Source: Lachnospiraceae bacterium
GTDB lineage: Bacteria; Bacillota; Clostridia; Lachnospirales; Lachnospiraceae
Direction: 5' to 3'
DNA: 64,000 bases
Assembly (NCBI GenBank): GCA_017617545.1
Contig: JAFZVZ010000018.1
Span: 52,299-116,298, forward strand
The notes below the pieces were generated by a model that saw only the letters and a program-made list of their open reading frames with translations, was not told the origin of the DNA and made no database searches. Numbering within the stretch: position 1 is the stretch's first letter; every line of letters starts with the position of its first letter. Of this stretch, positions 23,636 through 60,896 are shown piece after piece. Both the position numbers and the translations under genes were made by a program.

Positions 23636-23664
23636 TTGCCTACAATAGGGAGAAATGGTATAAT
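23636..23664 (+). promoter_or_regulatory. Promoter of the relA transcript
   Basis: TTGCCT at 23636-23641 and TATAAT at 23659-23664, 17 bases apart. A second TATAAT lies at 23672-23677. Either yields a leader of about 275-285 bases that contains the repeats described next. Confidence 0.75.
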
Positions 23665-23701
23665 CTTAGTTTATAATGGGAAATGTGTAACCACATTTCA
23701 T

Positions 23702-23940
23702 TACATTCCAGAAATGGAGGCGATATCAAAAACGAGGACGTTTTTGATATCTGTCCGTTTCGCTGCGTAATCCTCGCGAAACCGGCCTGATTTCTGTTCG
23801 TTTTGCTATGTTACATTCCAGAAATGGAGGCGATATCAAAAACGAGGACGTTTTTGATATCTGTCCGGTTTCGCTGCGTAATCCTCGCGAAACCGGCCTC
23901 CTTTCTGTTCATTTCGCTTCGCTACATTCCAGAAAGGAGG
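23702..23940 (+). repeat. Tandem SD-bearing leader repeats before relA (two full copies plus a partial third)
   Basis: Copy 1 starts at 23702, copy 2 at 23812 and a partial copy 3 at 23923; all start TACATTCCAGAAA. Each full copy of about 110 bases holds a GGAGG, a 13-pair hairpin (23722-23734 with 23739-23751; 23832-23844 with 23849-23861, loop AGGA), a second hairpin (in copy 2 CCGGTTTCGC 23865-23874 with GCGAAACCGG 23887-23896), then a pyrimidine-rich arm complementary to the SD of the next copy. Copy 3 supplies the SD used for relA. Not a CRISPR: no spacers or cas genes. Confidence 0.92.
23897..23940 (+). promoter_or_regulatory. SD-sequestering hairpin at the relA start
   Basis: CCTCCTTTCTG (23897-23907) is an exact complement of CAGAAAGGAGG (23930-23940), an 11-pair stem with a 22-base loop. 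It encloses the whole relA SD, 11 bases before the ATG at 23952. When folded, ribosome access should be low. Confidence 0.85.
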
Positions 23941-23951
23941 GTAAAACCGTC

Positions 23952-26345
23952 ATGGGTAAGGATACGGAGAATGCAAATCTGACCATTGCAGATGAGAACC
24001 GCGATACTGTTACTTCGGCAATTGACAGCGCAGCAACTACAGCTGACTCGGACGAAGCAGCGGAAGTTGTCGAGGAAATCGGCACGGGACTCGGCGCGAC
24101 CGAAGATTTCACGGAGCCGGAACAGTTGTATGAAAAGCTGATCGAGACGATCCGGAAGTATCGCCCTACGACGGACCTCACGATCATAGAGCGCGCGTAC
24201 AAGCTGGCGCTGGACGCGCACGGGAACCAGAAGAGAAAGAGCGGCGAGCCCTACATCATCCATCCGCTGTCGGTGGCGATCATCCTGGCAGAGCTCGAGA
24301 TGGACAAGGAAACCATTGTGGCGGGTCTTCTGCACGATGTCGTCGAGGATACGACGATCACCGAGGCGGAGCTCACACGACTGTTCGGCTCGGAGGTGAC
24401 GCTCCTTGTAGACGGCGTCACCAAGCTGACGCAACTGAATTATTCGCAGGATAAGATCGAGGTACAGGCGGAGAACCTTCGAAAAATGTTCATCGCCATG
24501 GCCAAGGATATCCGTGTCATCGTGATCAAACTGGCGGACCGCCTTCACAATCAGCGGACGATGCAGTACCAGTCGCCCGAGAAGCAGATTGAGAAGTCGC
24601 GCGAGACGATGGAGATCTACTCCCCGCTTGCGCACCGGCTCGGTATCAGTAAGATCAAGAAGGAACTGGACGACCTTGCCCTCAAATACCTCAAGCCCGA
24701 CGTATACAAACAGCTGTCGGAGGATATCAAGGCGACGCGCGCAGAGCGCGAGTCGTTCGTGCAGAAGATCTCCGACGAGGTCGGCAAGAAGATGGAGGAG
24801 GCAGGCATCCACGCCGAGATCGACGGGCGCGCGAAGCACTTCTTCAGCATTTACCGGAAAATGGTCAACCAGAACAAGTCGATCGAGCAGATCTACGACC
24901 TCTTCGCCGTCCGTATCATCGTCGAGAGCGTCAAGGACTGCTATGCGGCGCTCGGCATTTTACATGATATGTACAAGCCGGTGCCGGGACGCTTCAAGGA
25001 TTACATCGCCATGCCCAAGGCCAACAACTATCAGTCGCTGCACACGACGCTGATCGGCCCTGGCGGCACGCCGGTGGAGATCCAGATCCGGACGAAGGAA
25101 ATGCACCGCATCGCCGAGTATGGTATCGCGGCGCACTGGAAATACAAGGAATCCCAGAGCGGCAAGCACGTGGACAACGCCGAGGATGAGAAGCTCGCGT
25201 GGCTTCGTCAGATCCTTGAGTGGCAGCGTGACATGTCCGACAACAAGGAATTCCTGAACAGCTTAAAGAGCGACTTTGACCTCTTCAACGACAGCGTGTA
25301 CTGCTTCACGCCTACGGGTGAGGTGAAGACGCTGCCGGTCGGATCGAACACGGTCGATTTTGCGTACAGCATTCACAGCGCGGTCGGCAACAAGATGATC
25401 GGCGCGCGCGTCAACGACCGTCTCGTGAACATCGAGTACGAGATCCAGAACGGCGACCGCGTGGAGATCATCACCTCCGCGAACGCGAAGGGACCGAGCC
25501 GCGACTGGCTCAAGATCGTCAAGAGCGCGCAGGCGCGCAACAAGATCAACCAGTGGTTCAAGGCGGAGCTCAAGGATGACAATATCGCGCGAGGCAAGAA
25601 CGCCATCGCGAACTACGCGAAGACGAAGGGCATCAACCTGTCCGATATCTCCAAGCCGGAATATCAGGAGGCATGTCTCGTAAAATACGGCTTCCGCGAC
25701 TGGGAGTCGCTGATGGCCGCGATCGGCCACGGTACCATCAAGGAAGGCCAGGTCGTCAACAAGCTCTACGAGGAGTGGAACAGAGCCCGCGAGAAGAATA
25801 TGACGGCGGAGGAGCAGGTGGAAGCTCTGCTCACCGAGGAGCGCGCGAAGCCGCAGCGCAACAGACAGGGCGGCGGCATCGTCGTGCAGGGCGCCAACGA
25901 CCTCTCGGTTCATTTTTCGAAGTGTTGTGCTCCGGTTCCCGGAGACCCGATCATCGGCTTCGTCACGCGCGGCCGCGGTGTTTCCATCCACCGCTCGGAC
26001 TGCGTGAACATGCAGCATCTCTCGGACGATGACAAGCAGCGCCTGATCGAGGCCAAATGGGAAGTGCCGGCCGATGAGGCGGAGACGCTTTCGGAACGTA
26101 CCTACAACGCGGAGGTTCGAATATTTGCGAACAACTCGCACAAGACGGAGACGCTTCTCGAGGTCATTCGCATCCTGAATGAGAATAATCTGAATATCAA
26201 CTCCACGACCGTACGGCCGGGCAAGAACGACATCAGCACGATCGTTGTCTCGTTCGAGGTTCACAGCACAGCGCAGCTGAACGCGATGATGAACCGCATC
26301 CGCCAGGTGGAATTTGTCGTGGATGTGGAGCGTACCGCGGGCTGA
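23952..26345 (+). CDS. relA: Bifunctional (p)ppGpp synthetase/hydrolase (RelA/SpoT, Rel)
   Basis: 797 residues. After an acidic N-terminal extension of about 60 residues comes the hydrolase HD domain (KRKSGEPYIIHPLSVAIIL, GLLHDVVEDT), the synthetase domain (KDYIAMPKANNYQSLHTTLI), the TGS domain (VYCFTPTGEVKTLPVGSNT), a conserved Cys-containing zinc region (HFSKCCAPVPGDPIIGFVTR) and a C-terminal ACT domain. This is the long Rel that makes and degrades the starvation alarmone on ribosomes. ATG 23952 is chosen because it follows the SD; an in-frame upstream ATG at 23808 reads through the leader repeats. HD and synthetase residues look intact. Confidence 0.95.
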   Translation: MGKDTENANLTIADENRDTVTSAIDSAATTADSDEAAEVVEEIGTGLGATEDFTEPEQLYEKLIETIRKYRPTTDLTIIERAYKLALDAHGNQKRKSGEPYIIHPLSVAIILAELEMDKETIVAGLLHDVVEDTTITEAELTRLFGSEVTLLVDGVTKLTQLNYSQDKIEVQAENLRKMFIAMAKDIRVIVIKLADRLHNQRTMQYQSPEKQIEKSRETMEIYSPLAHRLGISKIKKELDDLALKYLKPDVYKQLSEDIKATRAERESFVQKISDEVGKKMEEAGIHAEIDGRAKHFFSIYRKMVNQNKSIEQIYDLFAVRIIVESVKDCYAALGILHDMYKPVPGRFKDYIAMPKANNYQSLHTTLIGPGGTPVEIQIRTKEMHRIAEYGIAAHWKYKESQSGKHVDNAEDEKLAWLRQILEWQRDMSDNKEFLNSLKSDFDLFNDSVYCFTPTGEVKTLPVGSNTVDFAYSIHSAVGNKMIGARVNDRLVNIEYEIQNGDRVEIITSANAKGPSRDWLKIVKSAQARNKINQWFKAELKDDNIARGKNAIANYAKTKGINLSDISKPEYQEACLVKYGFRDWESLMAAIGHGTIKEGQVVNKLYEEWNRAREKNMTAEEQVEALLTEERAKPQRNRQGGGIVVQGANDLSVHFSKCCAPVPGDPIIGFVTRGRGVSIHRSDCVNMQHLSDDDKQRLIEAKWEVPADEAETLSERTYNAEVRIFANNSHKTETLLEVIRILNENNLNINSTTVRPGKNDISTIVVSFEVHSTAQLNAMMNRIRQVEFVVDVERTAG

Positions 26346-60551: not shown

Positions 60552-60668
60552 AACTACGTTTCGCAAAAGGAGGTGTTGCGAAAACCACTTCGTGCTTTTC
60601 GCAGTTGCCCGGTCGCGCTTCGCGCAACCGACCTCCTTTCGCTTCAACTACGTTTCGCAAAAGGAGGT
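60552..60668 (+). repeat. SD-bearing leader repeat pair with anti-SD arm (same layout as relA leader)
   Basis: A 23-base direct repeat (60552-60574 and 60646-60668) ends in AAAAGGAGGT. Between the copies: hairpin TGCGAAAA (60577-60584) with TTTTCGCA (60596-60603), hairpin CGGT/GCGC (60610-60618) with GCGC/ACCG (60622-60630), then ACCTCCTTT (60631-60639), an exact complement of AAAGGAGGT (60660-60668). The order (SD repeat, hairpin, CCGGT-type hairpin, CCTCCTTTC arm, TTCGCTTC loop with CTAC, SD repeat) matches the relA leader. Confidence 0.9.
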
Positions 60669-60839: not shown

Positions 60840-60896
60840 GTCGGTATTACGATTTGATTTGAAAGCACGCTTTCGAAATCAAATCGTGATGCCGAC
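60840..60896. other. Long imperfect palindrome (about 24 pairs)
   Basis: GTCGG, AT, ACGATTTGATTT and AAAG pair in order with CTTT, AAATCAAATCGT, AT and CCGAC across a CACG loop, with small mismatches. Far longer than needed for termination and without a T tract. It could be a structured RNA, a cruciform or a protein-binding site. Confidence 0.8.

What the first reader, a model, noticed from the sequence alone, without database searches (positions are those of the whole stretch)
23702..23951. relA leader built from tandem SD-bearing repeats that can mask each other's ribosome sites
Two full copies of about 110 bases and a partial third lie between promoter and relA. The 3' arm of each copy is complementary to the SD region of the next. 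The key 7-base arm differs between copies and its partner differs to match: ATTTCTG (23790-23796) with CAGAAAT (23819-23825), and CTTTCTG (23901-23907) with CAGAAAG (23930-23936), both with 22-base loops. That compensatory change points to selected RNA pairing. Translational control of Rel by such an element is not something I recognise.
Basis: partly seen in the sequence, partly recalled or inferred. Interest (0 to 1): 0.78.

Follow-up and report, generated by a model that had tools for sequence, protein, structure and literature searches.

The report
Ribosome-site-inserting repeat before relA
The odd leader of this bacterium's stress-signal gene relA is two tandem copies of a small repeated element that sits between a gene's ribosome-binding site and its start codon and brings its own ribosome-binding site folded in a hairpin; copies stand before many unrelated genes, and no description of it turned up in the open papers searched.

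Summary
In detail: two ~110-nt tandem units, complementary arms and 22-nt loops at the stated coordinates, with the relA Shine-Dalgarno (SD) inside a strong hairpin. This is not a relA device but a dispersed repeat: 6 of 22 genomes of the genus have it, and one genome of a second genus of the family holds about 34 loci. Unit: upstream SD, hairpin 1, hairpin 2 with a conserved 12-nt loop TGCGTAATCCTC, then hairpin 3, whose 3' arm is a new SD 2-13 nt before the start codon. Stems differ between copies with many compensating changes. In the second genus full copies lie just behind a native SD (11 of 12), and the element's own SD precedes an ATG in 30 of 34 loci. Of 20 relA leaders read in the genus, 18 have no unit. 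Predicted cost of freeing the relA SD is 9.1 and 10.3 kcal/mol in the two carriers, 0.2-3.7 in the 18 others, so lowered or gated relA translation is likely but unproven. Strong masking and the SD1/SD2 switch are not kept in the second genus. Best reading: a non-autonomous repeat inserted at ribosome-binding sites that restores an SD. Its mobiliser is unknown.

The parts
23636..23664 (+). promoter-like TTGCCT-17-TATAAT of relA
   Evidence: read by eye; a similar TATAAT stretch precedes relA in G009, which lacks the element
23694..23720 (+). probable partial 5'-most copy: hairpin-3 remnant and SD1 (GGAGG 23716-23720)
   Evidence: read by eye
23722..23751 (+). unit 1 hairpin 1 (13 bp, loop AGGA)
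   Evidence: I3
23757..23782 (+). unit 1 hairpin 2, loop TGCGTAATCCTC 23764-23775
23786..23830 (+). unit 1 hairpin 3: anti-SD arm (ATTTCTG 23790-23796), 22-nt loop, CAGAAAT + middle SD GGAGG 23826-23830
23832..23861 (+). unit 2 hairpin 1
   Evidence: I4
23865..23896 (+). unit 2 hairpin 2, loop TGCGTAATCCTC 23875-23886
23897..23940 (+). unit 2 hairpin 3: CCTCCTTTCTG / CAGAAAGGAGG; masks the relA SD (GGAGG 23936-23940)
23952..26345 (+). relA (RelA/SpoT family, 797 aa)
   Evidence: TIGR00691 E 5e-238
60566..60668 (+). second copy of the element in the window (hairpin 2 with triloop TTC instead of the 12-nt loop), before a 21-codon ORF
   Evidence: (G000:C32:112864-112966)

Best explanation
The leader is a tandem pair of a small (~100 nt), non-autonomous, dispersed repeat whose copies stand between the SD and the start codon of their target genes, in sense orientation. 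The unit is three back-to-back hairpins. The 3' arm of the last one is a new SD at working distance from the start codon, so the target gene keeps a ribosome-binding site although its own SD has been pushed ~100 nt upstream. Hairpins 2 and 3 carry conserved loops (12-nt TGCGTAATCCTC, and TCRYTNCRYTC), most likely recognised by the mobilising machinery or a trans factor; the stems vary but mostly stay paired. Tandem arrays would follow from recombination between the flanking SDs. In this genus hairpin 3 buries the new SD (median opening cost 9.2 kcal/mol), so relA is expected to be translated less, or only when the hairpin is opened. Shown by computation: repeat family, position, anatomy, compensation, empty relA sites, predicted masking. 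Inferred: mobility, how arrays arise, loop recognition, effect on Rel levels.
For: Same unit before unrelated genes: R1 gives 30 places in 6 of 22 genomes; 38 pieces in G084 of a second genus. Start codon 2-13 nt behind the element's SD in 21 of 24 terminal units, ORF >=100 aa in 17 of 24; in G084 an ATG 5-9 nt behind it in 30 of 34 loci; background, any GGAGG with an ATG of a 60-aa ORF 3-13 nt later: 23 of 171 in the window, 22 of 115 in G084 loci. Full G084 copies lie just behind a native SD: 11 of 12 at <= -6 kcal/mol, control windows 6.2% of 3277. 18 of 20 relA leaders in the genus without a unit. Compensation: 93.4%, 92.9% and 86.4% of cells paired; 11 of 20, 17 of 32 and 13 of 20 pairs with double changes; covariation score reached by 0 of 500 shuffles each time. 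SD opening at relA 9.1 and 10.3 against 0.2-3.7 in 18 non-carriers. In G084 the element's SD serves murG, hisG and a MetG-like gene (all three are 5'-truncated copies), so that SD probably works.
Against: No transposition enzyme identified, no clean target-site duplication beyond SD-like sequence. Y1 transposase absent from carriers G000, G005, G010, G014, G084, G399. In G084 the element's SD is hardly more masked than ordinary sites (median 4.3 for 12 full copies against 3.1 for 25 window sites), so strong masking is not a family-wide property. Six of 25 first-genus units lack the 12-nt loop and 8 of 25 miss the hairpin-3 loop pattern. Some stem changes are not compensated (ftsX: 7 of 8 and 2 of 3 differing pairs), and the measure 'further pair types' does not exceed shuffles (101, 424 and 415 of 500). 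It is not clear that SD1 of the relA array is native.
Confidence: 0.74

Rival explanations
1. A regulatory RNA regulon: the unit is a translational switch (ligand, protein, small RNA or temperature acts on the 12-nt loop), copied before genes that profit from common control; hairpin 3 is the off state, SD1:anti-SD the on state.
For: Hairpin-2 loop conserved across two genera while stems covary; strong SD masking in the first genus; SD1 can pair with the anti-SD in most first-genus units (median -11.6 kcal/mol) and nearly as well as SD2 in relA unit 2 (-18.1 against -19.9); several regulator targets (relA, PadR, sigma factors).
Against: Targets in G084 look unrelated (murG, hisG, MetG-like, DegV, ABC ATPase); the 12-nt loop is lost in 6 of 25 units that keep their SD; SD1:anti-SD pairing is weak in five G084 units tested (median -4.9 against -13.5); presence at relA is patchy; no Rfam family reaches its gathering score anywhere in the window.
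Confidence: 0.25
2. Retroposition-like spread: an RNA or single-stranded copy ending in GGAGG primes on the complementary strand of another ribosome-binding site, giving full and 5'-truncated copies behind native SDs.
For: In G084 many copies lack 5' parts but keep the 3' end; six truncated copies (L176, L186, L195, L197, L198, L200) have a stronger SD match right upstream than 97% or more of their own control windows (this cut was chosen after seeing the values).
Against: By the cut set in the script, 3 of 16 truncated copies reach -6 kcal/mol, binomial P 0.07; internal deletions with the SD end kept by selection explain them too (L184 is one). No reverse transcriptase was looked for.
Confidence: 0.1
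3. Palindromes without selection: stems are kept perfect by template switching in replication, and SD-bearing 3' ends survive only because the gene needs an SD.
For: Decayed copies keep the SD end; loops are lost in several copies; uncompensated changes exist.
Against: The hairpin-2 loop is shared across two genera with different stems; the three hairpins stay paired in 90-95% of cells in 21 units.
Confidence: 0.2

Closest known systems
Pneumococcal BOX/RUP/SPRITE repeats (PMC3049150, passages read)
   Same: Small dispersed repeats, predicted RNA stem-loops, BOX with tandem internal modules and variable copy number, some copies upstream of genes
   Different: BOX, RUP and SPRITE are over-represented between convergent genes in that paper (Table 1); here copies sit at start codons and carry the SD. 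No sequence comparison was made.
Prokaryotic MITEs (review PMC10969869, passages read)
   Same: Short, non-autonomous, transcribed into stable stem-loops, effects on neighbour genes
   Different: No terminal inverted repeats seen by eye, no clear duplication; the review's main text has 0 uses of 'ribosome', 'Shine-Dalgarno' and 'start codon'
REP/REPIN elements mobilised by RAYT (recalled)
   Same: Hairpin elements, often in pairs or arrays
   Different: Stems vary and a loop is conserved here; Y1 transposase in only 2 of 8 carriers
SD-sequestering leaders: RNA thermometers, translational riboswitches (recalled)
   Same: Anti-SD:SD hairpin just before the start codon
   Different: Spread before unrelated genes; no known sensor; no Rfam match in the window

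Membership tests
MITE | short, no coding capacity, many dispersed copies | tested here: met
   unit ~100 nt
MITE | terminal inverted repeats | tested here: not met
   by eye on the G084 copies: left end at hairpin 1 (GTTTGAAAG), right end GGAGGTTAA, not inverted copies; ends in the first genus are uncertain
MITE | ends shared with an autonomous transposon | tested here: inconclusive
   no two of the 38 G084 pieces frame a kb-scale element; other genomes not searched for one
MITE | target-site duplication | tested here: inconclusive
   only SD-like sequence is repeated on both sides
REP/RAYT or IS200/IS605-derived | Y1 transposase in carrier genomes | tested here: not met
   PF01797 in 6 of 26 genomes; of 8 carriers only G002 and G011 (the latter with a remnant copy); some carriers are incomplete MAGs
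Known structured RNA (Rfam 15) | match at gathering score | tested here: not met
   0 matches in the window
Translational riboswitch / thermometer | SD sequestered in a structure | tested here: met
   (first genus, predicted); weak in G084
Translational riboswitch / thermometer | ligand or temperature response | not testable with these tools
   needs probing or reporters
BOX element | boxA/boxB/boxC sequence modules | not tested
   no sequence comparison made

The most novel reading that the evidence does not exclude
A ribosome-binding-site-homing element: it recognises SD sites, inserts behind them, and keeps the host gene alive by carrying a replacement SD inside its own folded end, giving ready-made translational control; its loops are guide or protein sites, and it may move through an RNA or single-stranded copy primed at the SD.
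Probability: 0.2. Interest if true: 0.88.

Novelty: new variant of a known kind. Interest (0 to 1): 0.66.

Why it matters
The small repeats in the papers seen here bring promoters, IHF or RNase sites, or sit between convergent genes. An element found nearly always between SD and start codon, which gives the SD back in a hairpin, would be a self-effacing parasite at the translation start and a way to put many genes, the stringent-response gene among them, under RNA-structure control at one stroke. It also warns that a striking 'leader RNA' with covariation can be a repeat.

Tried and rejected
Rfam: no match in the window at gathering score. Dedicated relA element: rejected by relatives. The 12-mer loop as a genome motif: 31 hits with up to 1 mismatch in the own genome. 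Of the 30 with a locus, 6 are element units with 4-10 flanking stem bp and 24 have 0-3 bp; the 24 lie in stop-free stretches of 130 codons or more, but 5 of the 6 element units also lie in... stretches of 94-546 codons by that measure, so the split rests on the stems, not on the open frames. The 31st hit (C44:7406) lies in the C44 unit. Viral spread: 0 and 6 stretches; of these five are identical around the match and none shows flanking stems by eye. IS200/RAYT mobiliser: not supported. Kissing of the hairpin-1 loop AGGA with the 12-nt loop: possible in relA, not in the other units shown. CsrA binding to that AGGA loop: considered, not tested. Pairing of the two conserved loops: GTAAT/ATTAC fits some units, not others. 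One R1 place, L079, was judged a chance SD hairpin. Literature: the loop sequence gave one unrelated paper; the listings showed nothing that describes the element, and one search returned 0 papers. The library holds open-licence PMC papers only.

Full report
Observation. The downstream product is a RelA/SpoT family protein (TIGR00691, E 5e-238).

The unit is not confined to relA. A search of the own genome with the leader gave weaker hits elsewhere. Read out, they share one anatomy: SD1; hairpin 1; hairpin 2 with loop TGCGTAATCCTC; anti-SD; loop; SD2; start codon. One of the 13 units (sigma, C9) has no SD1. A covariance model of hairpins 2 and 3 (R1, 13 units) found 30 places in 6 of 22 genomes of the genus at E <= 0.01. 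I reject one as chance (L079), read one as a remnant (L062), and one is cut by a contig end (L075). A second copy lies inside the window at 60566-60668. Targets by profile: RelA, PadR, sigma factors, glycosyltransferase 2, FtsX permease, an aquaporin-like protein (below the curated cut-off), desulfoferrodoxin, GlgC, cysteine synthase.

A second genus. A whole-unit model (R2, 21 units) over 299 genomes of the family (drawn evenly) matched 3: G000, G002 and G084, of another genus. R3, from both genera (22 units), matched 4 of 397 family genomes (G000, G002, G084, G399) and only G000 of 392 in the order draw; in the genus of G084, 2 of 4 genomes. The large draws use stricter filters and take few species per genus. 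A pattern scan of the named genome collection gave 4 loci, all MAGs titled Lachnospiraceae or Lachnoclostridium, two of them from water-buffalo rumen or reticulum by title; that the window's family is Lachnospiraceae is inferred from these. BLAST of one unit in G084 gave 38 pieces, which I group into 34 loci; L195 and L196 are near-duplicates on two contigs. The stems of hairpins 1 and 2 differ from those of the first genus; the hairpin-2 loop is the same.

Position. In the first genus 24 terminal units were tested (the 6 inner units of arrays were left out): 21 have a start codon 2-13 nt behind the element's SD, 17 with an ORF of at least 100 aa; L065, L074 and L079 have none. In G084, 30 of 34 loci have an ATG 5-9 nt behind it by script; L197 too by eye; L173 (SD mutated), L178 and L202 do not. 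A GGAGG in general is followed by an ATG of a 60-aa ORF in 23 of 171 cases in the window and 22 of 115 in G084 loci. The models contain SD2, so copies that lost it are under-counted; the BLAST search has less of that bias.

Insertion. Twelve full G084 copies were tested for a native SD in the 14 nt before hairpin 1: 11 reach -6 kcal/mol against 6.2% of 3277 control windows; of 16 truncated copies 3 do, P 0.07. Of the 34 loci, L166, L178, L183, L184, L196 and L202 were left out, and the L163 array is represented by its upstream unit L167. For relA, 20 leaders were read of 22 genomes (19, G015; in G003 and G021 the match starts inside the gene). G000 has two units, G005 one with a triloop in hairpin 2; 18 have none, though G014 may keep a remnant of hairpin 3 by eye. 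R1 agrees. At the 60566 locus G014 has two units where G000 has one, so copy number changes at one site.

Pairing. On the given structures 93.4%, 92.9% and 86.4% of cells pair, double changes occur at 11 of 20, 17 of 32 and 13 of 20 pairs, 0 of 500 shuffles reach the covariation score, and slid structures fall to 33-53%. 'Further pair types' does not exceed shuffles. The structures were read from these same sequences, which favours them over the slid ones; A3 puts hairpin 3 of three rows out of register and A4 counts G084 hairpin 3 in the register of the first genus, which lowers the figures. At the 60566 locus both differing pairs against one G014 unit, and 2 of 3 against the other, are compensated; at ftsX 1 of 8 and 1 of 3 are. 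Template switching could also give compensation.

Loops. First genus, 25 of the 29 accepted places (L062, L075, L078, L082 not included): TGCGTAATCCTC exactly in 11, with one change in 7, with two in 1, absent in 6. The hairpin-3 pattern TCRYTN(1-2)CRYTC is met in 17 of 25. In G084, 11 of 17 matches of a loose stem pattern over 15 loci have the exact loop (overlapping loci count some units twice).

Masking. Opening cost of the SD: relA carriers 9.1 and 10.3, 18 non-carriers 0.2-3.7. First genus median 9.2 over 21 loci, range 3.4-15.8. G084 full copies 4.3, truncated 2.95 (12 each); 25 window sites, relA included, 3.1. So masking is strong in this genus and mild in the other. SD2 is the stronger partner of the anti-SD in 20 of 25 units; medians -11.6 (SD1) and -17.9 (SD2); in five G084 units -4.9 and -13.5, though one of them is even (-6.9, -7.1). 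A two-state switch is therefore possible for relA unit 2 (-18.1 against -19.9) but is not a family trait.

Mechanism. I take the element to be a non-autonomous repeat that lands at SDs and hands back an SD. In G084 that SD stands before murG, hisG and a MetG-like gene, all with 5'-truncated copies; full copies stand before, for example, a DegV, an ABC ATPase and a Fur-like gene. That copies are seldom seen elsewhere means either a target preference for SD sites or selection for the SD; the data do not separate the two. The mover is unknown: PF01797 is in 6 of 26 genomes tested and in 2 of 8 carriers.

Known things. In the pneumococcal paper (passages) and the MITE review (passages) I saw no SD-carrying, start-codon-bound repeat. 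The searches named in Tried and rejected found no description; comparisons with REP elements, thermometers and riboswitches are recalled.

Noticed in passing
window 60566-60668: Second copy of the element, hairpin 2 with triloop TTC, before a 21-codon ORF (MYGMNTANKLNK...) that is also found, behind two units, in G014 (L081, L084).
   Followed up: partly
window 23808-23951: The relA frame stays open upstream through unit 2 to ATG 23808, so a 48-codon N-terminal extension is possible on paper.
   Followed up: no
L126 (G000:C31:230504-230539) and the same stretch in G005, G009, G011, G014, G020: A different hairpin of SD-like arms (CCTCCTTT...AAAGGAGG around CGTAGC...CGGGAC), found with little change in six genomes.
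   Followed up: no
L085 1383-1499: A short-loop unit stands before a 39-codon ORF matching Pfam Hol_Tox (E 3.9e-06).
   Followed up: no
window ~60852-60890: Long near-perfect palindrome downstream of the second copy, by eye; its centre (tttgaaag...ctttcgaaa) recalls hairpin 1 in G084.
   Followed up: no
L205 (G399:C138:4514-4555): Unit with hairpin 1 apparently doubled and hairpin 3 missing, SD unmasked by eye before an ATG.
   Followed up: no
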